The position numbers and the translations under genes were made by a program. Of a stretch of 64,000 nucleotides of DNA, positions 19,463-49,399 are shown piece after piece. The notes under the pieces are model-generated. The model made no database searches. It saw nothing but the letters and a program-made list of their open reading frames with translations, and was not told where the DNA came from. Position 1 is the first letter of the stretch; each line of letters starts with the position of its first letter. The stretch covers positions 3,982,344 to 4,046,343 of the forward strand of contig NZ_CP025999.1 of assembly GCF_003086695.1 (NCBI RefSeq), written 5' to 3'. Source of the stretch: Stenotrophomonas sp. SAU14A_NAIMI4_8. GTDB taxonomy: Bacteria > Pseudomonadota > Gammaproteobacteria > Xanthomonadales > Xanthomonadaceae.

Positions 19463-19738
19463 TTGAACGCTGTCCTCACTCGTCCTGACACCAGTCGTGG
19501 CGCTGCCCGGCCACCGCTGCGCGAACACGTAGCCCAGTCCGTGCGCCGCTACCTGCGCGACCTTGATGGCTGCGATGCGGACGATGTGTACGAGATCGTG
19601 CTGCGCGAGATGGAGATTCCGCTGTTCGTGGAAGTGCTCAACCACTGCGAAGGCAACCAGAGCCGCGCCGCGGCCATGCTGGGCATCCACCGCGCCACCC
19701 TGCGCAAGAAGCTGAAGGAATACGGCATCAGCGCGTAA
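19463..19738 (+). CDS. fis: DNA-binding protein Fis
   Basis: Nucleoid-associated factor that bends DNA and activates rRNA and other growth-linked promoters. The 91-residue protein has a short variable N-terminus and the conserved C-terminal helix-turn-helix [33 protein letters not shown]. Length and order match Fis of other gammaproteobacteria. It follows the DUF3426 gene in the same direction. Confidence 0.95.
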
Positions 19739-19881: not shown

Positions 19882-20874
19882 TCAGCCCCCGCCCGCCTTC
19901 CAGTAATACCGCACCACATGGAAGAACACCGGCGCGGCGAAGCACACTGAATCCAGCCGATCGAGCATGCCGCCATGGCCTTCGATCATGTGCCCCCAGT
20001 CCTTGATGCCGCGGTCGCGCTTGATGGCCGACATCACCAGGCCGCCCCAGAACCCCATCAGGTTGATCAGCAGGGACAGCCCGAACGCCTGCAGCGGCGT
20101 GAACGGGGTGATCCACCACAGCGCCGCACCCAGCGCGCTGGCGCTCAGCACCCCGCCCACGAACCCTTCCACCGTCTTCGACGGCGACAGCTTCGGTGCG
20201 ATCAGGTGCCGGCCCAGCAGCTTGCCCCAGATGTACTGCAGCACATCGGACGACTGCACCACGATCACCAGGAAGGCAAACAACAGCACGTTGCGCGCCG
20301 GGTCGTGGCCCGGCACCTGCAGGTTCAGCAGCAGCGGCACGTGCGAAATGCAGAACACGCAGATCATCAGTCCCCACTGCACCTTGGCCGTGCGCTCTAG
20401 GTAGTGGGTGGTATCGCCGCCGATGGTCGACAGGATGGGCAGGAACAGGAACGCGTAGACCGGAATCAGCAGGGTGTACATGCCGTACCAGTCGATCCAC
20501 ACCAGGTAGTACTGCCATGGCAGCACGATGTAGAACGCCGCCAGCAACGCGTAGTAATCACCCGACCGGGTGGGTGCCAGGGTGATGAACTCGCGCAGCG
20601 CGAACAGCGAAATGATCGCGAACAGCACGATCACCCCGGCGCGGCCGAACAACAGCGCGCCACCCACCACGATCGCCATCACCCACCACGCGCGGATGCG
20701 CGAGACCAGGTTGGCGATGACCGCGCTGGGTTTGCCGCGCTGGCGCCAGCGCAGGGTCTCGGCCACCACCGTGGCCAGCACCAGCACCGCACCGATGCCG
20801 CCGAACAGCAGCCCGGTCTGCTGGCCCACGCTCTGCGTGGCCAGATCGCCGGACACATCGATCAGAAAACTCAT
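19882..20874 (-). CDS. ynbB: CdsA-family phosphatidate cytidylyltransferase (YnbB-like)
   Basis: Probably makes CDP-diacylglycerol or a related CDP-lipid from CTP. The 330-residue membrane protein has about eight helices and the CdsA signature SAIKRDRGIKDWGHMIEGHGG followed by MLDRLDS. SPSKTVEGFVGG is also conserved. It is the last gene of a six-gene operon. Its start overlaps the acyltransferase stop by four bases. The length and neighbours match E. coli YnbB rather than the housekeeping cdsA, so it is likely a second, pathway-specific enzyme. Confidence 0.88.
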   Translation of the reverse strand: MSFLIDVSGDLATQSVGQQTGLLFGGIGAVLVLATVVAETLRWRQRGKPSAVIANLVSRIRAWWVMAIVVGGALLFGRAGVIVLFAIISLFALREFITLAPTRSGDYYALLAAFYIVLPWQYYLVWIDWYGMYTLLIPVYAFLFLPILSTIGGDTTHYLERTAKVQWGLMICVFCISHVPLLLNLQVPGHDPARNVLLFAFLVIVVQSSDVLQYIWGKLLGRHLIAPKLSPSKTVEGFVGGVLSASALGAALWWITPFTPLQAFGLSLLINLMGFWGGLVMSAIKRDRGIKDWGHMIEGHGGMLDRLDSVCFAAPVFFHVVRYYWKAGGG

Positions 20875-21500
20875 GCGCGGCCCCCGTTCGGCGCCAGGTC
20901 AAGCAGTGCCTGCCGGCTGCGCGCCAGGAACGCCGCTTTGTCCTCTTCGGCCTGCAGGCGCAGCGGTGCGCCGAAGGTTGCGGTGCACAGCAATGGCAGC
21001 GGTAGGAAGCGGCCCTTGGGCATCACCCGCTTCAGGTTGTCGATCCACACTGGTACGAACTCCAGTTCCGGGCGCTGCCGCGCCAGATGGTAGATGCCAC
21101 TCTTGAACGGCAGCAGCGGCTCCTCACCGGTGTTGCGCGTGCCTTCCGGGAACAGGATCAGCGAGCAGCCTTCATCCACCGCATCGCGCAGTACCTGCAG
21201 GGGATCCTGCTGGCGGCGCGCCGCTTCGCGTTCCACCAGCACGCCGTTGAATACCGCATCGATCAGGTAGCGGCGCAGGCCATCGCGCTGCCAGTACTCG
21301 GCCGCGGCCACCGGCCGCACCTGGCGGCGCAACGCGGGTGGCATCGACGACCAGATCAGCACGAAGTCGCCGTGGCTGGCATGGTTGCCATAGTACACGC
21401 GGTGGTCGCTGGAGGGCGCGCAGCCGATCCACAGCGCGCGCGCACCGGTCAGCACATGGATGGCGCCACTGCAGGCACGGGCAATCACGCTTGCGAACAT
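20871..21500 (-). CDS. Lysophospholipid/1-acylglycerol-3-phosphate acyltransferase-type protein
   Basis: A 209-residue PlsC-superfamily acyltransferase. The catalytic motif NHASHGD (HX4D type) is near residues 39-45, and the glycerol-phosphate-binding block FPEGTRNTGEEPLLPFKSGIYHL follows near residue 118. It probably acylates a lysophospholipid or glycerol-phosphate intermediate at the inner membrane. The gene lies 10 bases after the small membrane gene and overlaps the cytidylyltransferase by four bases. An acyltransferase fits a full lipid-building module. Confidence 0.88.
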   Translation of the reverse strand: MFASVIARACSGAIHVLTGARALWIGCAPSSDHRVYYGNHASHGDFVLIWSSMPPALRRQVRPVAAAEYWQRDGLRRYLIDAVFNGVLVEREAARRQQDPLQVLRDAVDEGCSLILFPEGTRNTGEEPLLPFKSGIYHLARQRPELEFVPVWIDNLKRVMPKGRFLPLPLLCTATFGAPLRLQAEEDKAAFLARSRQALLDLAPNGGRA

Positions 21501-21510
21501 CAGGTTCCCC

Positions 21511-21948
21511 TCAGGTCTGCGGCCACAACACGGCCAGCAGCACCGCTACGAACTGCAGCGCGGTGAACAGATACTGGCGCAGCAGCAGGCCGCGCATGCC
21601 GGCCCAGCGCGCGTCCCAGCCACGCAGCGGCGCATCGGCCGGCAGCCGGCGCAGCCCGGCCACGTGCAGGGCCTGGTCGATCCGATGTGCTGCCGCCTCG
21701 CCCTGCAGGCCTTCCTGCAGCAGCAACTGCAGCAGGCTGGCATCCAATCGCACGCGCACCGCGAAGTACGCCTGCGCCAGGCCCAGCACCACGCTCAGCA
21801 GCACCAGGCCGGCGGCGATCATCGCCAGCCCCGGCTCGATGCCGAGCAGCAGCAGGCCCACCAGCAACAGTCCCAGCGACAGCACGGCGGGCCAGCGGCC
21901 CTGGCGCAGCAGCAGGTGCATCATCGGCAGGTCCGGGGCCTGGCTCAT
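21511..21948 (-). CDS. Small membrane protein within the phospholipid operon
   Basis: A 145-residue protein beginning MSQAPDLPMMHLLLRQGRW. It has two adjacent membrane helices (about residues 19-62), a soluble helical region with LQLLLQEGLQGEAAAHRIDQALHVAGLR, and a third helix near the C-terminus (LFTALQFVAVLLAVLW). The ATG overlaps the upstream stop as ATGA. No family is recognised. Its position suggests an accessory or scaffold role for the surrounding lipid enzymes. Confidence 0.75.
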   Translation of the reverse strand: MSQAPDLPMMHLLLRQGRWPAVLSLGLLLVGLLLLGIEPGLAMIAAGLVLLSVVLGLAQAYFAVRVRLDASLLQLLLQEGLQGEAAAHRIDQALHVAGLRRLPADAPLRGWDARWAGMRGLLLRQYLFTALQFVAVLLAVLWPQT

Positions 21949-23279
21949 ACGGTGGTCTCCTGTGCGGCAGCGGCCGCGATCGCCAACAGGTGAACGTCGT
22001 GCAGCACGATGGACGGCCGTGCCTGGCGCACCTGCGCCACCGCCTGCGCGGCATCGCCAGCGCGGCCACTGCACAGCAGCCACGTCGCCACGCTGGCGGC
22101 ACTGCGCGAATAGCCCAGCGCGCAACACACCAGCAGCGGCCCCTGCGCATGCAGGCGCTCGATCGCGGCGGCAGCGGCGCGCAGCTGGGCAGCGCTGGGC
22201 ACCACCAGGTCCAGCATCGGCACCCCGGCATAGACCGCGCCCGGGGCGCGGCAGGACAGTTCGGCACAGGTATCGACCACGCCCTGCAGCGGCGCCGGCA
22301 AGCGGCCGCTGGGCAGGCGCCCCAGCCACACACCGTCGGCCACCTGCACCGGCTGCGGCGCACGCCGTGTCCACAGCCGTGAATTGATCCATGCAGCGGC
22401 CAGGTACGGCGCCAGCAGCCAGCGTGCGGCCATGGTCAGCCGGCCATCGGCGCGCTTCTGGAACACCGCCGTGCCCAACCCCGCATACGCCAGCGCCACC
22501 AGCAGCAGCGACACCACCGGCCACAGCAGCCACAGCGCTGTGCCGTGCCACTGCAGCACCGGCAGCAACACCACGGCCGCCCCCAGCAGGTACAGCAGCG
22601 CCAGGCGCCAGCGCTTCGGGTCGCGCGCGGTGCGCCATGCGCGCAGCGGTGGCACACCCTGGTCGGGCCACAGCCACACGCACAGCCAGCCCACCAGCAG
22701 CCCGGTGGGTACATCGATGAAGTGGTGCTGGAAGGTGGTCAGCACCGATATGCCGATCAGCAGCGCCCACCCATGCAGCACCCAGCGCCACGCGCCGTGC
22801 AGGTACTGGGCGAACTTCACCCACAGCACGATCAGCAGCACGATGTGCAGCGATGGCGCCTGGTTGAACGGCTTGTCGAAACCCAGCAGCACATCGAACA
22901 GCCAGCCGAAGACGCCGTCGATCTCCGGCCGCTGGAAACTGAAGCGTAATGGCCACAGCAGGAAGCAGCTCACCGCGATCAGCTGCGCACTGAACAAGCG
23001 CAACGCGTGCCGGTCCAGTTCCAGCCGCTGCCGGCACAGGAACAGCGAAATGGCATAGAACAGATCGATGGACCAGTACGGCACGATGGTCCAGGCCACG
23101 AATGGAATGTGGGTTTCCCAAGCGAAGGCGAGCACCGGCACGTCCGGCTGGCGACCGGCCATCCAGTTCGCAAAGCCGTAGCTGGCGAAGAAGAACGGCC
23201 CCAGCAGCACCAGCCACAACAGGGCGCGCCGCCAGGGGCGCGTCGTGGGGGCCACCGGGGTGGCAGCGACGGCGGACAT
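21945..23279 (-). CDS. ynbD: PAP2-type membrane phosphatase fused to a dual-specificity phosphatase (YnbD-like)
   Basis: A 444-residue two-part protein. The N-terminal membrane half carries PAP2-like motifs: FNQAPSLHIVLL near residue 140 and a later TTFQHHFIDVPTGLLVGW. After further helices, the C-terminal ~130 residues are a cysteine phosphatase of the dual-specificity type with CX5R in CALGYSRSAASVATWLL. Both parts could remove phosphate from a lipid-phosphate intermediate. Start MSAVAATPVAPT overlaps the preceding stop (TGATG). The same fusion is known as YnbD in E. coli. Confidence 0.87.
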   Translation of the reverse strand: MSAVAATPVAPTTRPWRRALLWLVLLGPFFFASYGFANWMAGRQPDVPVLAFAWETHIPFVAWTIVPYWSIDLFYAISLFLCRQRLELDRHALRLFSAQLIAVSCFLLWPLRFSFQRPEIDGVFGWLFDVLLGFDKPFNQAPSLHIVLLIVLWVKFAQYLHGAWRWVLHGWALLIGISVLTTFQHHFIDVPTGLLVGWLCVWLWPDQGVPPLRAWRTARDPKRWRLALLYLLGAAVVLLPVLQWHGTALWLLWPVVSLLLVALAYAGLGTAVFQKRADGRLTMAARWLLAPYLAAAWINSRLWTRRAPQPVQVADGVWLGRLPSGRLPAPLQGVVDTCAELSCRAPGAVYAGVPMLDLVVPSAAQLRAAAAAIERLHAQGPLLVCCALGYSRSAASVATWLLCSGRAGDAAQAVAQVRQARPSIVLHDVHLLAIAAAAAQETTV

Positions 23280-25030
23280 CAGCCGACCCGGCGCGCCAGC
23301 GAAACGGTGAAGATGCCGAACTCGTCGATGCGCTGGGCCACCTTCTGGAACCCGGCCAGGCGTACCAGCTCGTCCATCTCCTGCTGGGTACGGCGGCGCA
23401 TCACCCACGCCGCGCCACCGCGGTGGCTGGTGAGCGCACGCGCGATGAACTCCAGCTGCGGATGCCACGGCTGGCCGGTATAGGCCAGGTAACCGCCCAC
23501 TGGTACGGTCGCGGCAATGCCCTGCAGCGAGCGCAGCACCGCATCGTTGTCGGGGAACAGTTCGTACAGGCCCGACACCACCGCCAGCGTCGGCGCCGGG
23601 TCCACCTTCGCCAGCTGCGCCGGGTCGAATGCATCGCCCTGTTCGAAGCGGGCGATATCGGTCGCCCCCAAGCGTTCGATCAAGGCCTGGCCTTGGGTCA
23701 CGTTCAGTTCGCTGAAATCGCGCAGCACGATGCGCTCGGCGCGCTGTTCGCCCTGTCCCAGCGCCTCCAGCACGTAGCGCCCGTGGCCTGCGGCCACGTC
23801 CAGCACGCGTACCGGCGTGCCCTGCCCGCGCAGGCGCTGGGCGGCGTCGCGCAGCAGTTCCTGCAGGTGCTGGCCGCGCACGCGGATACCGCGCCAGCCG
23901 ATCGCGTCCAGATAGTTGCGGTCGACCATGCGCCCCAGCGGGCCCTTGCCCCGCGCCTGGTCGCGGTAGATGTAATCCAGCGTGCTGCCCGAATCGAAGC
24001 CGGTCTGCAGGCCCAGGGCAATGCCCTCGGACAGCGTGCCGCCGAAACGCAGGCCACCACGCACAAAGCGCCAACGCAGGTCGGCCAGGCTGTTGCGTTC
24101 GGGCGGCCACGACAGAATCTCCGATTCTTCGAAGGTCGGACCGTGGCGGTGTGCATCGCGGCGCGACAGTTCGCGCAATGGTTCGGCGAAACGTGCCTGG
24201 ATGAAGCTGCGGATGCGTGCCAGTGCCGGCGCGCGGTCACGCTCGCCCAGGGTGTCGTGGAAGAAGCCCGGCAGGTGCACGCGCTCCTTGATCGGGCTGG
24301 ACAGGCGTTCGTAGAAGCGGTCCTGCGGGCCCCGGTGCACGACGAAATCCGAACCGGACACCAGCAGCTGCAGCGGCACGCTGATCGCCTGCGCATCGGC
24401 CACGATGCGGTCGGCCGCCTCGTACAGGCCCAGCAGCACGCGCACCGAAATCGGCCGGGTGATCAGCGGATCGGTGCGGTAGCTTTCCACCCGCGCCGGG
24501 TCGTGGGTCAGCCACTGCGGTTTCACGTAGCTGTTGACGAAGAAGTTGCCGCGCAGCTTCTGCATAAGCGCCAGCCCTGCCCGTGCGAACGGCACGTACA
24601 GCTTCACCTTGAACGCCGGCGAGGCCATCACCAGCGCCCGCAGGCGCGGCGCGTAGTCGTGCACCCAGGTGGCGGCCACCACCGCGCCCACGCTCTGCGC
24701 GATCACCACGATGTCTTCCACCGCGATGCCGTGCTCGGCGCCGATATGGGCAATGAAGCTGTCCAGGTCGCGGACCAGCGCCGGGAACCCGGGGGCATCG
24801 CCGCGCGCACCGGGCGAACGGCCATTGCCACGCGCATCCCACGCGAAGAAGGCGGTATCGGGCAGGTCCAGCTCATCGACCAGGTGGGTGACCCGGCCGG
24901 AATATTCGTGGCCGCGATGCAGCAGCACCACGGCCTTGCTGGCCGTGCTGCCCGTGGTGCTCGCCCAGTACCGGTAGAACAGCGGTACCTGGTCGAAGCT
25001 GTGGAATTCCCGTTCCTGCGCCTGACGCAT
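23279..25030 (-). CDS. ynbC: Bifunctional alpha/beta hydrolase-methyltransferase (YnbC-like)
   Basis: A 583-residue cytoplasmic fusion. The N-terminal ~290 residues are an alpha/beta hydrolase: AVVLLHRGHEYSGRV, DARGNGRSPG, nucleophile Ser in VVIAQSVGAVVAATW, and a late His in LPGFFHDTLGE. The nucleophile elbow AQSVGA departs slightly from GXSXG. The C-terminal ~200 residues are a SAM methyltransferase with VRVLDVAAGHGRYVLEAL. The fusion matches the uncharacterised E. coli YnbC. It could trim and methylate a lipid head group, but neither activity is shown. Confidence 0.87.
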   Translation of the reverse strand: MRQAQEREFHSFDQVPLFYRYWASTTGSTASKAVVLLHRGHEYSGRVTHLVDELDLPDTAFFAWDARGNGRSPGARGDAPGFPALVRDLDSFIAHIGAEHGIAVEDIVVIAQSVGAVVAATWVHDYAPRLRALVMASPAFKVKLYVPFARAGLALMQKLRGNFFVNSYVKPQWLTHDPARVESYRTDPLITRPISVRVLLGLYEAADRIVADAQAISVPLQLLVSGSDFVVHRGPQDRFYERLSSPIKERVHLPGFFHDTLGERDRAPALARIRSFIQARFAEPLRELSRRDAHRHGPTFEESEILSWPPERNSLADLRWRFVRGGLRFGGTLSEGIALGLQTGFDSGSTLDYIYRDQARGKGPLGRMVDRNYLDAIGWRGIRVRGQHLQELLRDAAQRLRGQGTPVRVLDVAAGHGRYVLEALGQGEQRAERIVLRDFSELNVTQGQALIERLGATDIARFEQGDAFDPAQLAKVDPAPTLAVVSGLYELFPDNDAVLRSLQGIAATVPVGGYLAYTGQPWHPQLEFIARALTSHRGGAAWVMRRRTQQEMDELVRLAGFQKVAQRIDEFGIFTVSLARRVG

Positions 25031-25054
25031 GCAATCTCCGTATTGTCGTGGTGT

Positions 25055-25672
25055 TTACTGCGGTGTAACCGCCGATTCCTGCAGGCCCCTGCGCACCCGG
25101 TTGAACAGCGTCACCGCGCACAGCAGTGCAGCCACGCCCGCCACCCACGTCACCGTGGCGGCCCCCACCCAGCCGAAGGCCAGCAGCAGGCCCAGCACAC
25201 CGATCACGAAGGCGCGGTCGCTCTTGCCCATGGGCCCATCGTAGCGCCGGCTGGCGCCGACCATCAGGCCCAGCACGCCGGCGTATTCGCTCAGTGCCGC
25301 CGCCCAGGCCAGCAGCCACAGCGCCACCGGGTTCACGCCCGCCACGCTGAGCAGGCTCAGGTACAGCGCGGCGTCGGCAATCACATCGCACAATTCGTTC
25401 AGATAGGCGCCCAGCCGCGACTGCTGGCCGAACTCGCGGGCCAGCATGCCGTCCACGGCGTTGAGCGCCATGCGCAGCAGCATCCACAGCGGCAGCAGCA
25501 GGTACAGCAGCGGTTGCGCCGGGGCGCAGCACCACACGGCGGCGGCCACCAGCAGCGAGACCACGGCGGCGGCCACAGTCACCGTGTTGGCGGTGATGCC
25601 GAGGCGGTAGAGCCCGCGCACGGCCGGAGGCAACAGGTCCTGGAAACGTCCTTTCAATGCATAGATCGACAC
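25055..25672 (-). CDS. ynbA: CDP-alcohol phosphatidyltransferase-family protein (YnbA-like)
   Basis: Probably transfers a phosphatidyl group from CDP-diacylglycerol to an alcohol acceptor at the inner membrane. The 205-residue protein has about six helices. The family block reads NAVDGMLAREFGQQSRLGAY then LNELCDVIAD. Two of the four usual metal-binding aspartates appear as Asn in this reading. A GTG start at 25672 gives MSIYALKGRFQDLL, which best matches the YnbA N-terminus; ATG codons further up would add unrelated sequence. It heads the operon, 24 bases before ynbC, divergent from purH. Confidence 0.83.
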   Translation of the reverse strand: MSIYALKGRFQDLLPPAVRGLYRLGITANTVTVAAAVVSLLVAAAVWCCAPAQPLLYLLLPLWMLLRMALNAVDGMLAREFGQQSRLGAYLNELCDVIADAALYLSLLSVAGVNPVALWLLAWAAALSEYAGVLGLMVGASRRYDGPMGKSDRAFVIGVLGLLLAFGWVGAATVTWVAGVAALLCAVTLFNRVRRGLQESAVTPQ

Positions 25673-25853: not shown

Positions 25854-27437
25854 ATGACTGCTGATCTGTTGCCCGTCCGCCGGGCCCTCCTTTCCGTTTC
25901 CGACAAGACCGGCCTGGTCGAGCTGGCCACTGCACTGGCCGCACGCGGCGTGGAGCTGCTGTCCACCGGCGGTACCGCCAAGGCCATCCGCGATGCCGGC
26001 CTGGCCGTGAAGGACGTGGCCGATGTCACCGGCTTCCCGGAAATGATGGACGGCCGGGTCAAGACCCTGCACCCGATGGTGCATGGCGGCCTGCTGGGCC
26101 GTTCGGGCCTGGACGATGCGGTGATGGCCGAGCATGGCATCGGCGCCATCGACCTGCTGGTGCTGAACCTGTACCCGTTCGAAGCGGTCACCGCCAAGGC
26201 CGACTGCACCTTGGCCGACGCGGTGGAAAACATCGATATCGGCGGCCCGGCCATGCTGCGCTCGGCGGCCAAGAACTTCGCCCGCGTGGCGGTGACCACC
26301 GACCCGTCGCAGTACGCCGAACTGCTGGCCTCGCTTGAAGCCAACGACGGCCAGCTGAGCGCCGCCACCCGCTTCGCGTTCTCGGTGGCCGCGTTCAACC
26401 GCGTGGCCCAGTACGATGCGGCCATCAGCAACTACCTGTCGGCGGTCACCGCCACCGACGTCGCCGTGCCGGTGCGCGCCGAATACCCGGCGCAGATGAA
26501 TTCCACCTTCGTGAAGGTGATGGACCTGCGCTACGGCGAAAACCCGCACCAGAGCGGCGCGTTCTACCGCGACCTGTACCCGGTGCCGGGCACGCTGGCC
26601 ACCTTCCAGCAGCTGCAGGGCAAGGAACTGAGCTACAACAACCTGGCCGATGCCGATGCGGCGTGGGAATGCGTGCGCCAGTTCGACGCGCCGGCCTGCG
26701 TGATCGTCAAGCACGCCAACCCGTGCGGCGTGGCCGTGGGTGCCGGCAACGGCGATGCCTATGAACTGGCCTACGCCACCGACCCGACCAGCGCCTTCGG
26801 CGGCATCATCGCCTTCAACAAGCCGCTGGACGCCGCCACCGCCAAGGTGATCCTGGACCGCCAGTTCGTGGAAGTGCTGATCGCCCCGGACTACGAGCCG
26901 GCCGCGCTGGAATACGCGCAGAAGAAGGCCAACGTGCGCGTGCTGCGCATTCCGCACGGTGATGGCCTGAACAACTTCGACAGCAAGCGCGTGGGCTCGG
27001 GCCTGCTGCTGCAGTCGTCGGACAACCGCGGCATGACCCGCGACGAACTGAAGGTGGTCAGCAAGCTGGCGCCGACCGACAAGCAGTTCACCGATCTGCT
27101 GTTCGCCTGGAAGGTGGCCAAGTTCGTGAAGTCCAACGCGATCGTGTACGCCAAGGACAACCGCACCATTGGCGTGGGCGCCGGGCAGATGAGCCGCGTG
27201 TACTCGGCACGCATCGCCGGCATCAAGGCCGCCGACGCCAACCTGGTGGTCGAAGGTTCGGTGATGGCCTCCGACGCGTTCTTCCCGTTCCGCGACGGTA
27301 TCGATGCCGCCGCCGCTGCCGGCATCAAGGCGGTGATCCAGCCGGGCGGTTCGATGCGCGATGCGGAAGTGATCGCCGCCGCCGACGAGCATGGCCTGGC
27401 CATGGTGTTCACCGGCGTTCGCCACTTCCGCCACTGA
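25854..27437 (+). CDS. purH: Bifunctional AICAR formyltransferase/IMP cyclohydrolase
   Basis: Last two steps of purine synthesis, AICAR to IMP. The 527-residue protein starts [23 protein letters not shown]. The N-terminal IMP cyclohydrolase domain has [36 protein letters not shown] and [17 protein letters not shown]. The C-terminal transformylase domain has [28 protein letters not shown] with the catalytic Lys-His, [13 protein letters not shown] and [14 protein letters not shown] [20 protein letters not shown]. Length and motifs are complete. It is divergent from ynbA and precedes a lipoprotein gene and purD. Confidence 0.97.
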
Positions 27438-35996: not shown

Positions 35997-38900
35997 TCAG
36001 CGGTCCGCGCGGTCAACGGTGGCCGGTGCAGGCAGTACCTGCACCTGCACCCGGTCGGCCCACCCGTCTGGCAACCGCGCCAGCACGGCCTGCTGCAGCA
36101 CGCGGCCGCGGTCTGCCGCCAACGCTTCCTGGCCCGCCTCGGCACGCACCTGCAGCACCCCGCCCTGGCGGGCCTGCAACGCGCTGGCCGCCTGCACCAG
36201 TACCGCCTCGTTGCCAGGTGCCAGTTCGGCGCGGCCCGGTACGAACAGTGCAGGACCGAACTCCAGCCGCAGGGCCGGACGACCGCTGTCGAACCGTGCA
36301 TCGGGCAGCTGCACGCCGAAGTCGAAGCGTACCGGCAACCCCGGGGTGATCCGCCGCAGCAGCGGGTTGCGCGTGGTGAAGCGCGCGTCGGCCGGCAGCG
36401 TGGTCGGGTCCACCTTCAGGATGAAGTTGCGCCCACGTGCCTGGCCGCCGTTGATGCCGACCAGGTGGTAGCGGCCGAAGGCATCGGTTTCCATCACCAG
36501 GCCTTCCACCGATGCCACGCGCACGCCGGGAATGCCGCGCTCACCGTCATCCTGGATGCCGTTGCCGTTGCGGTCTTCGAACACGCTGCCCAGGATCAGG
36601 CTCTCGTCCAGCAAGGGATCGCCCACCACCTCTACATCGGCCGACGCCACGTTGCCGATGCTGGCGTTGACCGCATCCACCGCGGTCACCCGGTTGGTGT
36701 GGATGCCCTGGCCCACGCCAGCCCCCACGCGCAGGTAGTACACCAGCGTGGCGCGGCCACCGGCGGCGATATCCACCTGTTCCACCCGCAGCGGTGAACG
36801 CGCGCTCACGAACGCGGCGTTGTCCAGGTCGCGGGCCTCGAAGCCCTCCTGCACGAAGGTGAAGCCGGCCGGCAGCGTATCGACCACGTTCACGCCCAGC
36901 GCGTCCACTTCGCCCAGGTTTTCCACGGTCACCACGTAGCGCACCAGCTCGCCCACTTTCACCGTGCGCTGCGCCGTCTGCTTGGTCAGGCGCAGCACGG
37001 CACCGCTGGCGGTGACGGTGATGTTCACCCGGCCATCGGCGCAGACCGGGGTCGGAATGGAGACGTCGCAGATGTTGTAGGTGAAGGCATCCTGGCCGCT
37101 GTAGCCGACGAAGGCGGTGTAGATGCAGACGCCGTCGGTGCAGCCCAGGCGGCCGTAGCGCGGCGCGGCCAGCACGCGCAGCGAACGCGGGTTGATCGGC
37201 GCGCCGCTGGTGCTGATGTTGTCCAGCAGCGAGATCGTGACCGGTTCACCATCGGGCGTGGTCACGGTCTCATCCACCACTTCCACGGCGTTGGCCTGCA
37301 CCTGCACCGTCACGCTGGCGGTACCGCACTGCACCGGCGCGGCCTGCGTGCAGACGGTGTAGGCGAAGGTGTCACTGCCGCTGAACGTGGCCGCCGGCGT
37401 GTAGCGCACACTGCCGTCGGCCAGTACTGCGGCCGTGCCCGAGGTGGGCGCAGTGCTGATGGTCACGGCCACCGACGCCGGCACCACCGGGCTGCCGGCG
37501 ACCAGGTCGTTGGCCAGCACCGCCACCACCACCGGGCTGTCCTGCGGCGTCGTAGCGGTATCGTCGGCGGGCTGCACGGTGCTGCCCGCCGGTGGGTTGG
37601 CCAGGGTCACCGTCACCGTACCGATGTCGCAGACGCTGGGCTGGCTGACCAGGCAGATCTGGTAGGTGGTGGTGTAGGTGGCGCCGGCCACACCGGCGGC
37701 AACGTCCACGCTGCCATTGGCCTGGATGGTGATGGCCGTGGTGTTGGTGGGGGTCAGCTGCACCGTGGTCGGGTCCAGCGCGGCGCCGTTGAACGTGTCG
37801 TTCACCAGCACGTTCAACACTGCGGTGGCGCCGGTGGCCGGCACATCGGCAATCGCATCATCCACCGCGACCAGGGTGCCACCCGCGGCGCTGACCGTGA
37901 TGGCCAGTGTGGCGGTATCGCACACGCCGGCATACGGCGCGGGCAGGCACAGCTGGTAGATGAAGGAATCGTTGCCGGTGTAGCCTGCGTTGGGCGTGTA
38001 GGTGTAACTGCCATTGGCATTGAGCACCACGGTGCCCTGCGCCGGTGCGGTCACCAGCGAGAACACCGAACCGCCGCCGGCGTTGTCATTGCCCGCCACG
38101 CTGCCGCTCAGCGCCTGCCCGGCCGGCGTGGTGGCCACGTCGTTCACCGCGTCCGGACGTACCAGCACCAGTGCCGTAGCCTGCGCGCAGTTGCCCGTGT
38201 TGCTGGCTTCGCAGATCTGATAGGTCAGGTTGAGCGCACCGGCCGCGGCACTGCCGGCGATGGTGATGATGCCGTTGGCATCGATGCTGACGCCTGCCGG
38301 AGGTGCGACCAGGGACACCGTGACCTGCGCCGGCTGCACCGGCACGCCATTGATCAGGTCATTGCCCAGCACCGACGGCGTGGACCCGCCCGCGCCAGGC
38401 AGGGTGGGCGTGCCACTGAAGTTGTCGCTCACTGCCTGAAGGGTCGTGGCGCTCACGGTCACGCTGACCGACCCGGTGTCACAGACATTGAGGTTCGGTG
38501 CCGGCAGGCAGACCTGGTAGGTGAAGGTATCGGTGCCGGTAAAGCCCGGGTTCGGGGTGTAGCTGATGGTGTTGTCACCATTCACCACGGCGGTGCCGTT
38601 CAAAGGCGCAACGATCACCGTGAACACCGGGTTCAACGGCAGCGTGTCGTTGGCGGCAACGTTCAGCACGGTGGTGCCGGTACCGGCCGACAGCGTGTCA
38701 TCGGCCGCGTTCGGGCGCACCGCCACCAGTGCGGTGGCCTGCGCGCAGTTGGTCGGCACCGCGTTTTCGCAGACCTGGTAGTTCAGCGTGGTGGCGACCG
38801 GAACCAGACCCGCAGCGACGGTGATGACGCCGCTCGGGCTCATGCTGTAGCCGGTGGGCGGCGTGATCAGCGTGGCGGTTACCGGCGTGGTACCCGGCAC

Positions 38901-41900
38901 GATGGGCGCACCGTTGAAGCTGTCGTTCAACAGCACGCTGGTGGTGGTGCCGCCGGTGGCCGGCACGATGGGTGTCGCGCTGAAGTCATCGTTCAACGCG
39001 CTCACGCTGGTCGTGCCCACGTTGACGGTGACGGTGGCGGTGGAGCACACCCCCGCTGCCGGCGCGGGCAGGCAGACCTGGTAGGTGAAGGTGTCAGCGC
39101 CGGTGAAGCCCGCCGCAGGCGTGTAGCTGATGGTGTTGTCGGCGTTGACGACCGCGGCACCATTGCCCGGCGCCACCAGCACGGTCAGCGTGGGGTTGGA
39201 CGGCAGGGTGTCGTTGGCGGTGACGTTAAGCACCGTGGTGGTGCCGGCCGTTGCCGTCAGGGTGTCGTTGGCCGCAGCAGGACTGACCGCAACCACCGCG
39301 GTGGACTGCGCGCAGTTGCTGGGCACCGCGTTCTCGCAGACCTGGTAGGTCAGCGTTGCCGCAGCCGGCGGCGTGCCCGGTGCCACCGTGATCTGCCCGT
39401 TGGCAGCCATCGTGTAGCCCGCAGGCGGGGTGATCAGCGTTGCGGTGACCGGCGTGGTGCCCGGCACGATCGCAGCGCCGTTGAAGGTGTCGTTGAGCAA
39501 CACGCTGGTGGTGGTGCCGCCGCTGGCCGGTGCGATCGGCGCGGCGGTGAAATCATCGGCGTTGGCGACCAGGGTGGTGGCCGCAACGGTGAGGCTGACC
39601 GTGGCGGTGTCGCAGACGCCGGCGGCCGGTGCCGGCAGGCACACCTGGTAGGTGAAGCTGTCGCTGCCGGTGAAGCCTTCCGAGGGCGAGTAGCGGATCG
39701 TGCCGTCTGCCAGCACCGTGGCCAGGCCGTTGGTCGGCGCAACCGTCACGGTCACCACCGGGTTCGACGGCACGGTGTCGTTGGCCAGCACGTTCAGGAT
39801 GGTGCTGGTACCGGCGGCAGCCAGCAGGGTGTCGGCCACCGCGTCCGGGCTGACCGCCACCAGCGCCGTTGCCTGCGCGCAGTTGGTGGGCACGGCGGTT
39901 TCGCAGACCTGGTAGTTCAGCGTGACCGCCGCGGGCGTGGTGCCCGCCGCAACGGTGATGACGCCCGTTGCGCTCATGCTGTAGCCGGTCACCGGCGTCA
40001 CCAGCGAGGCAGCAACCGGGGTGGTACCAGGCACGATGGCCGCACCGTTGAACGTGTCGTTCAACAGCACGCTGGCGGTGCTGCCACCGGTGGCGGGTGC
40101 GATGGGCATGCCGCTGAAGTCATCGGCGAGCGCGCTGATGCCATTGGCACCCACCGTCAGGCTGACCGTGGCGGTATCGCAGACCGCACTGCCCGGCGCC
40201 GGCAGGCACAACTGGTAGGTGAAGCTGTCCGCGCCGGTGAAGCCCGGCGTCGGGGTGTAGTTGATGCTGCCATCTGGATTGACCGTGGCAGTCCCGTTGG
40301 CCGGTGCCGCCGACACGGTCACCACCGGGTTCAGCGGTGCGGTGTCGTTGGCCAGCACGTTGAGCACGGTGGTGGTCCCCGCCGTTGCGGTCAGGGTGTC
40401 CGCCACCGCTTCCGGGCTGACCGCCACGATGGCCGAGGCCACCGCGCAGTTGGTCGGCACCGCGTTTTCGCAGACCTGGTAGTTCAACGTCACTGCGGCA
40501 GGCGTGGTACCCGGTGCCACCGTGATCACGCCGGCCGGGTTCATGCTGTAGCCGTTCACCGGCGTCACCAGCGAGGCGCTGACCGGCGTGGTGCCCGGCA
40601 CGATGGCCGCGCCATTGAAGGTGTCGTTCAGCAGCACACTGGCGGTGCTGCCACCGGCCGCCGGGGCGATCGGCGCCGCAGTGAAGTCATCGCCCAGGGC
40701 GCTGAGCGTGGTGTTGCTGACGGTGACCGTCACCGTCGCCGAATCGCAGACCGTGGCGCCGGGGGCCGGCAGGCAGACCTGGTAGGTGAAGCTGTCGGTG
40801 CCGGTGAAGCCCGCCGTCGGGGTGTAGCTGATGCTGCCGTCGGCATTCACCGTGGTGCTGCCATTGGTCGGTGCGACCGACACCGTCACCGTCGGGTTGG
40901 CCGGTGCGCGATCGTTGGCCAGCACGTTCAGTACGGTGGTGGCGCCAGCGGCAGCGGGCAGCGCGTCGGCCACCGCCTCCGGGCTGACCGCGACCACGAC
41001 GGTGGCTGCCGCACAGTTGGTCGGCGCCGCGTTCTCGCAGACCTGGTAGTTCAGCGTGGTTGCCGCCGGCGTGGTGCCCGCCGCAACGCTGATCACCCCG
41101 TTGGCCGACATGCTGTAGCCGCTGGGCGGCGCCAGCAGCGACGCCGTCACGGCAGTGGTGCCCGGCACGATGGCCGCGCCATTGAACGTATCGTTGAGCA
41201 GCACGCTGGTGGTGCTGCCGCCGGTGGCCGGCGCGATAGGCGCTGCGGTGAAGTCATCGTTGGTCGCCACCAGCGAGGTGTTGCTGACCGCAAGCGAAAC
41301 GGTTGCAGTGGCGCAGACCGTTGCCGCCGGCGCGGGCAGGCACAACTGGTAGGTGAAGCTGTCGGCACCGGTGTAGCCGGCCGTCGGCGTGTAGCTGATG
41401 CTGCCGTCGGCATTGACCGTGGTGGTGCCGTTGGTCGGCGCCACCGACACGGTCACCACCGGGTTCTGCGGTGCGGTGTCGTTGGCCAGCACGTTCAGCA
41501 CGGTCGTGGTACCGGCGGTGGCCGGCAGAGTGTCGGCCACCGCCACCGGGCTGACCGCGACCACGGCCGAGGCCGACGCGCAGTTGCCCGGCACCGCGTT
41601 TTCGCAGACCTGGTAGTTCAGCGTCGTCGTCGCCGGCGGTGATCCTGCGGCCACGGTGATCACGCCGTCGGCCGCCATGCTGTAGCCCGGCACCGTGGTC
41701 AGCAGCGAAGCGGTCACCGCCGTGGTGCCCGGCACGATGGCCACGCCATTGAACGTGTCGTTCAACAACACGCTGCTGGTGCTGCCGCCGGCCGCGGGAG
41801 CGATCGGGCTGCTGCTGAAATCATCGTTGGCCGCGGTCAGCGTCGTGGCCGCCACGGTGACGGTTACCGCCGCGGTATCGCAGACCGCCGCCGCTGGTGC

Positions 41901-44900
41901 CGGCAGGCAGACCTGGTAGCTGAAGGTATCGGTGCCGGTGAAACCAGCGCTGGGCGTGTAGCTGATGGTGCCGTCGCCATTGACGAGGGTGGTGCCGTTG
42001 CCCGCCGCCACCGATACGGTCACCAGCGGGTTCAGCGGCGCGGCATCGTTGGCCAGCACGTTCAGCACGGTGGTGGCACCGGCGGCCGCCGGCAGCGCAT
42101 CGGCCACGGCGTCCGGGCTGACCGCCACCAGCGCGGTGGCCGCGGCACAGTTGCCCGGCACCGCGTTTTCGCAGACCTGGTAGTTCAGGGTCGCCGCGGC
42201 CGGCGTGGTTCCCGCAGCAACGGTGATCACACCGCTGGCCGAGATCGTGTAACCGGCCGGCGCGGCAATCAGCGTGGCGGTGACCGGCGTGGTGCCCGGC
42301 ACGATGGGGGCGCCGCTGAAGGTGTCGTTCAACAGCACGCTGCTGGTGCTGCCACCGGTGGCCGGTGCAATCGGGCTGGCGCTGAAATCATCGTTGCTGG
42401 CCACCAGCGAGGTGGCACTGACAGTGACCGTCACCGTGGCCGAATCGCAGACCGTGCCGCCCGGCGCGGGCAGGCACAGCTGGTAGGTGAAGGTATCGGT
42501 ACCGGTGAAGCCGGCGGTCGGCGTGTAGCTGATGGTGCCATCGCCATTGGCCACGGCCGTGCCCTGGCTCGGGCCGGCACTGACGGTGACCACCGGGTTC
42601 AGCGGCGCGGCATCGTTGGCCAGCACGTTCAACACCGTGGTGGTGCCTGCGGTGGCCGGCAGGCTGTCGGCGACGGCATCGGGGCTGACCGCCACCAGTG
42701 CGGTGGCGGCGGCGCAGTTGGTCGGCACCGCGTTCTCGCACACCTGGTAGCTGAGCGTGGTTGCCGCCGGGCGCGTACCCGCGGCCACACTCACCACACC
42801 GTCGGCCGACAGGCTGTAGCCGGACACCGGCGTGACCAGCGATGCGGTGACCGGCGTGGTGCCCGGCACGATCGCACTGCCGCTGAAGGTGTCGTTGAGC
42901 AGCACGCTGGTGGTGCTGCCGCCGGCCGCCGGATCGATGGGCGTGGCCAGGAAGCTGTCATTCACCGCGACCAGCGAGGTCGTGCTGACCGTCACCGCCA
43001 CCGTGGCGGTATCACACACGCTGCCATGGGGCGCCGGCAGGCACAGCTGGTAGGTGAAGGAATCCGGCCCGCTGAAACTGCCGGTGGGGGTGTAGCTGAT
43101 GCTGCCGTCGGCGTTGACCACGGCGCTGCCATTCACCGGCGCCACGCTGACGGTCACCACCGGCGTGGCCGGTGCCACGTCGTTGGCCAGGACATTCAGT
43201 ACGGTGGTCGCACCGGCCGCGGCCGGCAGTGCATCGTTCACTGCATCCGGGCTCATCACCACCACCGCCGTGGCGGTGGCACAGTTGGTCGGCGCAGCGG
43301 TTTCGCAGACCTGGTAACCCAGCGCGACCGAGCCCGGCAAGGTACCGGCCGCGACGCTGATGACACCATTGGCGGCCATGCTGTAGCCGGACACCAGGGT
43401 GGTCAGGCTGGCGGTGACCGGGGTGGTACCCGGCACGATGGCCGCACCGTTGAAGGTGTCGTTGAGCAGCACGCTGGCGGTACTGCCACCGCTCGGCGGG
43501 ACCGCGCTGGCACTGAAATCATCATTCACCGCCACCAGTGCAGCGGCCGCCAGGGTCAGCGCCACCTGGGCGGTATCGCAGACAGCGCCGTCCGGTGCCG
43601 GCAGGCACACCTGGTAGGTCAACGTATCGGCACCGCTGGCGCCCGCGTTGGCGGTGTACTGCAGGCTGCCGCTGGTCGACAGCACCGCGCTGCCCAGGGT
43701 GGGCGGGGTAACCACGGTATACGTGGCACCGGCAGGCACGTTGTCGTTGGCGGCCAGGTCGAAGGTGCCCGGCTGGGTGCCGGTCACGCTGCCGCTGTCA
43801 TCGACGGCATCGGGCGCAACCACTACCTGCACCGCGGCGGTATCGCAGGTGCTGCCGCCCTGCTCGCACAGCGAGTAGGTGAGCGTGGTGGCACCGGCCG
43901 GCGCGTAGCTGGCCACGGTGATGATGCCATTGGCATCAATGCTGAAACCGGTGGGCGCGGCCACCAGATTGGCCGTGACCTGCAGCGGATTCACCGGCGC
44001 GCCGTTGAAGCTGTCGTTGGCAAACACCGTGGGCGTGGTGCCGCCGGCACCGGGCGCGAACACGGGGCTGCGGAAGTTGTCATCCACCGCATCAACGGTG
44101 TTGGCCACCACCGTGATCGTGACCGTGCCGGTGGCACAGACGGCCGCATCGGGCGCCGGCAGGCAGACCTGGTACTGCGCGGTCTGCGGCCCCGCCGCGG
44201 CCGGTGCATAGCTGAAGCTGCCGTTGCCCTGCAGGGTGAACGTGCCAGCGGCCGGCGGCGTGACCAGGCTGTAGGTCGCAGCTGCAGGCGCGTTGTCATT
44301 CAGGCTGACATCGCCCACCAGGGGCTGCCCGGCCGAGGTGCTGTAGCTGTCGTCGGTGGCAGCGGGCGCCACCACCAGCGCGACCTGGGCGGTGTCGCAG
44401 TTGGCGGTACCGGCCTCGCACAGTTCATAGGTCAGGGTCTGCGCGCCAGCAGCGGCGCCGGCCGGCACGTTGATCACCCCGGCGCTGGTGAAGGTGTAGC
44501 CCGGCGGCGGTGCGTTCACCAGGCTCACGCTCACCTGCGCGGCGGTCACCGCCGCGCCGTTGAACAGATCATTGCCCAGCACGCTGGGCGTGCTTCCGCC
44601 GGTCACCGGCGAGATGGCCGGCGTGCCAAAGGCATCGTCCACCGCATCGACCGTGTTGGCGGTGATGACAAAGGTGGCCGTCGCCGTCGAGCACACCGCA
44701 CTGTTCGGTGCGGGCAGGCAGACCTGGTAGCTGGCGCTGTCAGTGCCACCGCTGCCGGCGGCCGAGGTGTAGGTGAAGCCGCCATCGGCGGCCAGCAGCA
44801 GCGTGCCCTGGGTGGGGGCGACCAGCACGCTGAATTCCGCACCGGTACCGGTGCTGTCATTGCTGGCCACCGAACCGGTCACGGCCTGGCCCGACTGCAC

Positions 44901-49270: not shown

Positions 49271-49399
49271 CGCCCCATCCCCTGCGCCGCGGCTGCACCC
49301 GACCAGCACCGCCCGGACATTGCCGGTGATGAGGCATGTGTCGCACACTGGCTTCGATGTTTCTGATGTTTTCCGGCGCTGCGTGGCCGGTTTTGCGAT

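What the first reader, a model, noticed from the sequence alone, without database searches (positions are those of the whole stretch)
19882..25672. A self-contained six-gene phospholipid module related to the uncharacterised ynbABCD genes
The operon encodes a CDP-lipid synthase, a CDP-alcohol phosphatidyltransferase, a PAP2/dual-specificity phosphatase fusion, a hydrolase/methyltransferase fusion, an acyltransferase and a small membrane protein, nearly all with overlapping stops and starts. Together these activities could activate a lipid, attach an alcohol phosphate, remove the phosphate and methylate or remodel the product. The logic parallels phosphatidylglycerol and phosphatidylinositol synthesis, but none of the housekeeping genes matches. 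The acyltransferase and the 145-residue protein are additions relative to the E. coli set as I recall it.
Basis: partly seen in the sequence, partly recalled or inferred. Interest (0 to 1): 0.75.

Follow-up and report, generated by a model that had tools for sequence, protein, structure and literature searches.

The report
Arc1-type phospholipid operon in Stenotrophomonas
This six-gene lipid operon looks like the Stenotrophomonas version of arc1, a gene cluster that helps Pseudomonas survive attack by other bacteria, and its central enzyme lacks two of the four metal-binding residues thought essential in its family, which makes its unknown product a clear question to test.

Summary
Six genes lie where stated (minus strand, 25672-19882): CDP-alcohol phosphotransferase homologue (A), hydrolase/methyltransferase (B), PAP2/phosphatase (C), small membrane protein (D), acyltransferase (E), YnbB-type CTP transferase (F). 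The set is not new: Pseudomonas species share it, and it corresponds to arc1A-F (PA2541-36), a published Gac/Rsm-controlled antagonism-resistance cluster that helps survive lipase effectors; its chemistry is unknown. I could not fetch the P. aeruginosa genes themselves.

Two points go beyond the papers I read. (1) A breaks the CDP-alcohol phosphotransferase signature: the first and third Asp are Asn in 113 of 113 loci, Fusobacterium to E. coli; this genome's three other such enzymes are canonical. (2) E adjoins F in 30 of 30 YnbB-type loci sampled (not in E. coli K-12, Moraxella or Fusobacterium), and the 8 nearest Asn-type enzymes outside Arc1 lie within 1.5 kb of F, against 0 of 6 canonical relatives.

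Best reading: an inducible branch making a special phospholipid (E, F, A, then C; tailored by B) against phospholipase attack. Head group unknown; inositol unlikely. No structure could be predicted.

The parts
25055..25672 (-). Gene A (arc1A/ynbA): CDP-alcohol phosphotransferase homologue of the Asn type, 205 aa, GTG start
   Evidence: Pfam PF01066 31.8 bits; signature N71..D74-G75..A-R..G88...N92-E93..D96; orthologue with the same signature in 113 of 113 loci
25385..25462 (-). Altered signature in gene A (residues 71-96): Asn at the first and third Asp positions, Asp kept at the second and fourth
   Evidence: 113 of 113 Arc1A/YnbA loci; 3 of 3 other CDP-alcohol phosphotransferases of this genome canonical
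23279..25030 (-). Gene B (arc1B/ynbC): alpha/beta hydrolase fused to Methyltransf_20, 583 aa
   Evidence: Pfam 224.8 and 493.3 bits; S113, D228, H258 and the D-x-A-x-G-H-G-R-Y motif invariant in 12 of 12 aligned
21945..23279 (-). Gene C (arc1C/ynbD): PAP2-type membrane domain (PSLH ... HHFID) plus dual-specificity phosphatase (CX5R), 444 aa; overlaps B by 1 nt
   Evidence: motifs in 106, 107 and 106 of 107 scored hits
21511..21948 (-). Gene D: small membrane protein, 145 aa, conserved family without a Pfam model; overlaps C by 4 nt
   Evidence: 31 members aligned, D69, L72, R109, R114 invariant; no Pfam or NCBIfam match
20871..21500 (-). Gene E: PlsC-type acyltransferase, 209 aa, HX4D and FPEGT motifs intact
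   Evidence: Pfam PF01553 56.7 bits; adjacent to F in 30 of 30 YnbB-type loci
19882..20874 (-). Gene F (ynbB type): CDP-lipid synthase, 330 aa; overlaps E by 4 nt
   Evidence: Pfam PF01148 230.5 bits; GHGG..D..D in 85 of 85 and SPxKTxEG in 84 of 85
19463..19738 (+). Flanking gene fis (convergent), not part of the operon; name recalled from the sequence
   Evidence: found on the F side of the operon in 17 of 25 Lysobacteraceae loci
25854..27437 (+). Flanking gene purH (divergent), not part of the operon; name recalled from the sequence
   Evidence: within 3 kb of gene A in 21 of 25 Lysobacteraceae loci

Best explanation
The operon is the Stenotrophomonas arc1 cluster: a dedicated, membrane-embedded side branch of phospholipid synthesis. 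Proposed order: E acylates a lyso-lipid to a phosphatidic-acid-like lipid; F activates it with CTP to a CDP-lipid kept apart from the bulk pool; A, an Asn-type CDP-alcohol phosphotransferase with a re-set metal site, joins the lipid to a phosphate-bearing acceptor; C removes that phosphate (dual-specificity phosphatase domain) and perhaps also works through its AUR1-like PAP2 domain, helped by its partner D; B trims or clears acyl chains (lysophospholipase-like domain) and methylates the product. The product and the lysolipid clean-up help the membrane survive phospholipase attack by rival bacteria. Shown here: gene content, order, conserved active sites, the altered signature and the gene pairings. 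Published for relatives: the defence phenotype and CDP-DAG synthesis by YnbB. Inferred: every reaction of A to E, the order of steps, the head group, the sidedness of C, and the defence role in Stenotrophomonas.
For: Same six families in the same order in 77 of 80 named loci, including many Pseudomonas, which fits the paper's description of PA2541-36. Arc1 mutants lose antagonism resistance, partly restored by complementation; arc1A mutants are more sensitive to the lipase effectors TseL and Tle1. The YnbB family makes CDP-DAG but cannot carry bulk synthesis. E beside F in 30 of 30 YnbB-type loci. Equivalents of the phosphate-binding Arg155 and Arg195 of M. tuberculosis PIPS are invariant in A. 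The genome keeps three canonical CDP-alcohol phosphotransferases and a second CTP transferase. Proteins with A and B domains fused exist (P0118, P0120). In one Pseudomonadaceae-like genome (G190) A, E and F stand together without B. One Asn-type/F/E cassette lies in a VgrG-Tle1-like effector run.
Against: None of the papers I opened shows a reaction for A to E of any member. A lacks two metal ligands that the literature calls absolutely conserved. The P. aeruginosa genes were not retrieved here (0 of 25 genomes). RsmA-type leader motifs do not distinguish A from control genes. In P. aeruginosa arc1A's part against TseL is called auxiliary: the quadruple mutant is no more sensitive than the one lacking arc3A, and no single B. 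thailandensis effector explained the Arc1 defect. The T6SS-effector neighbourhood was absent in 7 of 7 related Asn-type loci. Composition varies: L118 has no C beside the rest, L112 and L114 have no E-F in the stretch, L117 shows only A and B, Fusobacterium only B-A-F.
Confidence: 0.55

Rival explanations
1. A plain second phosphatidylglycerol pathway: A makes phosphatidylglycerol phosphate from glycerol-3-phosphate and C dephosphorylates it, like PgsA plus a PTPMT1-type phosphatase (comparison recalled), giving an inducible supply of PG.
For: The arc1 paper notes that four genes resemble PG-synthesis enzymes; phosphate-binding Arg pair conserved; glycerol-3-phosphate is generally available (general knowledge).
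Against: A scores far below the PgsA model (19 vs cut-off 109.1 bits); signature altered in 113 of 113; does not explain B or the E-F pairing.
Confidence: 0.15
2. A phosphatidylinositol-type pathway using inositol phosphate as acceptor.
For: Best family models for A are archaetidylinositol-phosphate and PI-phosphate synthases (72.9 and 51.2 bits); best solved structure by sequence is M. tuberculosis PIPS.
Against: Both scores are far below cut-offs (180, 170); no INO1 match in this genome (controls ring in 6 of 14); S132 and K135 of PIPS align with Gly in the window protein.
Confidence: 0.04
3. A glycolipid route like MPIase: F adds a sugar phosphate to CDP-DAG to give a sugar-PP-DAG that the other genes process.
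For: YnbB overproduction raises MPIase, and YnbB restores it in CdsA-depleted cells.
Against: A ynbB deletion alone shows no MPIase or phospholipid defect; none of the six genes matches a glycosyltransferase family; ynbB was reported as not needed for ECA-PG.
Confidence: 0.08
4. Mainly a repair kit: E re-acylates lysolipids and B destroys the rest; A is a pseudo-enzyme or scaffold and makes no new lipid.
For: A lacks two metal ligands; B resembles lysophospholipase L2 weakly (31.6 bits, cut-off 362); lipase-resistance phenotype.
Against: The other signature residues of A and both acceptor arginines are invariant or nearly so; the PA2541 deletion has a phenotype that was partly complemented.
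Confidence: 0.15

Closest known systems
arc1A-F (PA2541-PA2536), antagonism resistance cluster 1 of P. aeruginosa (PMC8926400)
   Same: Six genes, five of them phospholipid-related per the paper; the six families occur in this order in many other Pseudomonas loci. The family of each single PA gene is recalled
   Different: Different genus and site (purH-fis); control and phenotype not shown in Stenotrophomonas; P. aeruginosa sequence not retrieved
E. coli ynbABCD
   Same: A, F, B, C families, including the Asn-type signature
   Different: Order A-F-B-C; no E and no D in K-12, though an E. coli plasmid has E beside F
Phosphatidylinositol-phosphate synthase (M. tuberculosis PgsA1, PDB 6h53)
   Same: Closest solved homologue by sequence; both phosphate-binding Arg and the fourth Asp kept
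   Different: First and third Asp are Asn; inositol contacts S132/K135 not kept; no INO1 match in the genome
YnbB / CdsA CDP-diacylglycerol synthases
   Same: CTP_transf_1 family and catalytic motifs
   Different: YnbB-type, mostly paired with an acyltransferase gene; YnbB cannot replace CdsA in E. coli
AUR1 / inositolphosphorylceramide synthase-type PAP2 enzymes (motif comparison recalled)
   Same: PSLH and HHxxD motifs without the Arg of the SRX5H motif, suggesting transferase-like chemistry
   Different: Fused to a dual-specificity phosphatase; Pfam PAP2_3 found only below cut-off and only for E. coli YnbD

Membership tests
arc1 antagonism resistance cluster | Six-gene set A-B-C-D-E-F in one direction, as in Pseudomonas species | tested here: met
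   Window; 77 of 80 named loci incl. many Pseudomonas
arc1 antagonism resistance cluster | Direct match to the P. aeruginosa genes PA2541-36 | not tested
   The genes could not be fetched (0 of 25 genomes); only the primer-implied start Met-Ile-Ser of PA2541 fits
arc1 antagonism resistance cluster | Gac/Rsm control | tested here: inconclusive
   CsrA/RsmA gene present; ANGGA upstream of A in 70/95, of B 65/92, of E 46/88, so not discriminating
arc1 antagonism resistance cluster | Protects against antagonism | not testable with these tools
   Needs competition assays; what I read covers P. aeruginosa
ynbABCD | Homologues of YnbA, YnbB, YnbC and YnbD together | tested here: met
CDP-alcohol phosphotransferase | Sequence homology to the family | tested here: met
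   PF01066 31.8 bits, cut-off 22; PIPS profile match 49.9 bits
CDP-alcohol phosphotransferase | Eight-residue signature DxxDGxxAR...GxxxDxxxD | tested here: not met
   Two of eight positions are Asn in 113 of 113 loci; called absolutely conserved in PMC4634129
Phosphatidylinositol-phosphate synthase | Curated score cut-off (NF045883) | tested here: not met
   51.2 vs 170 bits
Phosphatidylinositol-phosphate synthase | Inositol phosphate supply (INO1) in the genome | tested here: not met
   0 matches; controls ring in 6 of 14; uptake of inositol phosphate not tested
CdsA/YnbB CDP-DAG synthase | CTP_transf_1 domain and catalytic motifs | tested here: met
   230.5 bits; GHGG..D..D in 85 of 85
PlsC-type acyltransferase | HX4D and PEG motifs | tested here: met
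   80 of 81 and 81 of 81
AUR1-type PAP2 phosphotransferase | PSLH and HHxxD motifs with a significant profile match | tested here: inconclusive
   Motifs in 106 and 107 of 107; PF14378 not matched by the window protein, 22.3 bits (cut-off 27) for YnbD

The most novel reading that the evidence does not exclude
The Asn-type CDP-alcohol phosphotransferases form a catalytically re-set branch of the superfamily (metal site rebuilt around Asp2, Asp4 and the acidic residue that follows position 3). Together with a YnbB-type CTP transferase and a partner acyltransferase they form an unrecognised, widespread lipid cassette that makes a non-standard phospholipid. Arc1/Ynb is its elaborated, phospholipase-defence version.
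Probability: 0.3. Interest if true: 0.8.

Novelty: new member of a known kind. Interest (0 to 1): 0.55.

Why it matters
Arc1 is a published defence cluster whose chemistry none of the papers I opened explains. Finding that its key enzyme breaks the family's metal-binding signature in every locus tested, and that a smaller Asn-type/E/F cassette exists without the other genes, gives a compact starting point: three proteins, one missing metal-ligand pair, one lipid product. It also suggests that ynbABCD in E. coli K-12 is a reduced arc1, so a laboratory strain could be used to solve it.

Tried and rejected
Inositol lipid as product: weakened by no INO1 match and missing inositol contacts. RsmA-motif test of regulation: not discriminating. 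Retrieving P. aeruginosa by a primer segment printed in the paper: 0 of 25 genomes of one unnamed genus. A T6SS-effector link as a rule: seen in 1 locus (L172), absent in the 7 relatives examined, so kept only as a hint. Recent horizontal transfer into the window: not supported; the cluster sits within 3 kb of purH in 21 of 25 Lysobacteraceae loci, and purH and fis are close together in 7 of 8 genomes lacking it. Structures of C and D: never run, machine busy at every attempt.
Full report
What is there. Six genes lie head to tail on the minus strand between purH (25854, divergent) and fis (19738, convergent); both flanking names are recalled from the sequence. They are A 25672-25055, B 25030-23279, C 23279-21945, D 21948-21511, E 21500-20871 and F 20874-19882. 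Three of five junctions overlap (1, 4 and 4 nt); the other two are gaps of 24 and 10 nt. The genome is one 4.48-Mb contig, 100% complete; B is 95-97% identical to proteins of the Stenotrophomonas maltophilia group.

It is a known system. Ting et al. 2022 (PMC8926400; abstract, sections 5 and 6 and passages read) named PA2541-36 of P. aeruginosa arc1A-F. They report Gac/Rsm control, loss of resistance to B. thailandensis T6SS attack with partial complementation, and five of six genes related to phospholipids. A 2025 CRISPRi study (PMC12663445; passages read) found that arc1A contributes to resisting the lipase effectors TseL and Tle1, in a role called auxiliary to arc3A for TseL. None of the papers I opened gives the product, and no title listed by my searches (listings only for most) suggests it. 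YnbB, the F family, makes CDP-DAG in vitro, cannot replace CdsA for bulk lipid, and raises the glycolipid MPIase when overproduced (PMC6362211 passages; PMC7018664 passages). I could not fetch P. aeruginosa itself, and the family of each single PA gene is recalled. The link rests on the paper's description, on many Pseudomonas loci with the same six genes, and on a weak sign: the paper's deletion primers imply that PA2541 begins Met-Ile-Ser, as do four Pseudomonas-like A proteins here (L003, L004, L005, L010).

Distribution. B occurs in 27 of 398 Pseudomonadota genomes and, at full length, in 12 of 79 genomes of the window's family. Of 80 named loci (the best 80 of more, many of them Pseudomonas), 77 show A-B-C-(D)-E-F in one direction; 2 have E and F upstream of A (L062, L067); 1 contig (L073) shows only A to D. 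D was not matched by BLAST in 21 of the 80 but in most of these an ORF of the family follows C; Cupriavidus (L100) has no room for it. In 10 Xanthomonas and Lysobacter loci about 2.6 kb lie between C and E: two more genes, a 519-residue protein (matched to TIGR04222 in L036, the only one scanned with that library) and a second CDP-alcohol phosphotransferase homologue, which is weak in L036. In Lysobacteraceae the cluster sits within 3 kb of purH in 21 of 25 named loci (L041 at 2.8 kb), and fis is found on the far side in 17. In 8 genomes without it, purH and fis are within about 0.8 kb in 7 and fis was not seen in 1. So it is an old resident that is sometimes lost or absent, not a recent import. 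Variants: L118 has no C beside the rest; L112 and L114 have no E-F in the stretch, and in the genome of L112 an E-F pair lies on another contig beside another Asn-type enzyme; L117 shows only A and B; Fusobacterium shows B-A-F.

The altered enzyme. CDP-alcohol phosphotransferases carry DxxDGxxAR...GxxxDxxxD, described as eight absolutely conserved residues whose Asp bind metals (PMC4634129 and PMC6506517, passages). In M. tuberculosis PIPS, Mg-1 is held by D68, D71 and D89, and Mg-2 by D89 and D93. In gene A the equivalents of D68 and D89 are Asn. The same holds in 113 of 113 loci (111 distinct sequences, the window's own genome included), each with Glu directly after the second Asn; AR is AN in Fusobacterium and AK in Moraxella. 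These loci were found with gene B, not with A. The three other CDP-alcohol phosphotransferases of this genome are canonical (3 of 3). The second and fourth Asp, most of the TM5 motif GPxGKSDRA and the TM6 Arg are invariant in the 15-member alignment; GPxGKSDRA is found in 111 of 113, the 2 misses being cut by the locus end. The TM5 and TM6 arginines align with Arg155 and Arg195, which bind the acceptor phosphate in PIPS; the inositol contacts S132 and K135 align with Gly132 and Gly135 of the window protein. I infer a phosphate-bearing acceptor, probably not inositol: this genome has no INO1 match. By the evidence rule, A is a homologue of the family that fails its defining signature.

A smaller core. 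Searching 249 Pseudomonadota genomes with A gave Arc1/Ynb-type A proteins down to E about 1e-41 and then a gap to 1e-13. Of the next 14 loci read, 8 carry Asn at both positions, again followed by Glu or Asp; in these the Arg of AR is also replaced by Val or Ile. All 8 have an F gene within 1.5 kb; 6 are canonical and 0 have F or E there (one of these 6 loci is only 2 kb long). Larger stretches of 11 loci (with 91 and 105) show the Asn-type, E and F genes contiguous or nearly so; in L176 the Asn-type gene is divergent, and in L174 a 132-residue ORF intervenes. Other neighbours differ from locus to locus, for example tRNA-synthetase, KdpA and Dus genes. In reverse, a search with F in 249 genomes gave 32 YnbB-type hits of 222 bits or more, well apart from the rest (108 bits or less, apart from one 162-bit fragment). 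In the 30 that came with a locus, E is next to F in 30; the other two are L172 and L176, also with E. Counting the operons known, an Asn-type enzyme accompanies 21 of the 30; 9 have E-F alone within 1.5 kb. So in this sample E-F is a fixed pair, the Asn-type enzyme joins it often, and B, C and D are the Arc1 additions; one genome (G190) has A-E-F without B. Against this, F stands without E in E. coli K-12, Moraxella and Fusobacterium; an E. coli plasmid has E beside F. The samples overlap and include Arc1 loci, so the counts are not independent.

A hint toward function. In one genome the cassette follows VgrG, DUF4123, a Tle1-like phospholipase and DUF2931 genes on the same strand. None of 7 relatives examined has these genes within the 14-kb stretch, so this is one case only. 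It fits the published lipase-resistance phenotype but does not prove it.

Other parts. B keeps a Ser-Asp-His triad and a SAM-binding motif in 12 of 12 aligned, and A-B fusions exist. C has PSLH and HHxxD motifs like AUR1-type enzymes (comparison recalled) and an intact CX5R phosphatase loop. D stays beside C when E-F lies elsewhere (L112, L116, L128), so it is probably C's partner.

Best model and limits. E to F to A to C makes a special phospholipid, with B tailoring acyl or methyl groups, induced under attack. Gene content, order, signature and pairings are shown here; the reactions, head group and role in Stenotrophomonas are inferred. Leader GGA motifs did not discriminate, though a CsrA gene and an Arc3A-family (DUF2339) gene are present. 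Structure prediction could not be run.

Noticed in passing
window 35997-46979 and 47090-49348, minus strand: A 3660-residue protein of bacterial Ig and cadherin-like repeats, next to a DUF11/SpaA-like protein; looks like a giant surface adhesin pair.
   Followed up: no
L036, L039, L040, L043-L047 between genes D and E: Xanthomonas and Lysobacter operons carry an extra membrane protein (TIGR04222 in L036) and a second CDP-alcohol phosphotransferase homologue with Asn at position 1 in 8 of 8 read, and at position 3 Asn in 4, Ser in 3, His in 1.
   Followed up: partly
L172, 5067-13153, minus strand: VgrG, DUF4123, Tle1-like phospholipase, DUF2931, then an Asn-type phosphotransferase, F and E in one run; not seen in 7 related loci.
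   Followed up: partly
L225, L226, L227: The E-F pair without an Asn-type enzyme lies beside a RuvC-like gene in L225 and L226 and beside a PurH-like gene in L227, so a purH neighbourhood recurs outside Xanthomonads (gene names recalled).
   Followed up: no
L124 (Moraxella osloensis plasmid): Variant set: A, B, then a patatin-like phospholipase and an SDR oxidoreductase, with F and a PAP2 gene on the other strand.
   Followed up: no
G000:C1:3498857-3501079 and G000:C1:1697755-1697910: The window's genome also has an Arc3A-family (DUF2339) protein and a CsrA/RsmA gene.
   Followed up: no
L127 (E. coli plasmid): A plasmid-borne ynb set with an acyltransferase; gene A matches in two pieces and gene C is cut short. 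Described only.
   Followed up: no
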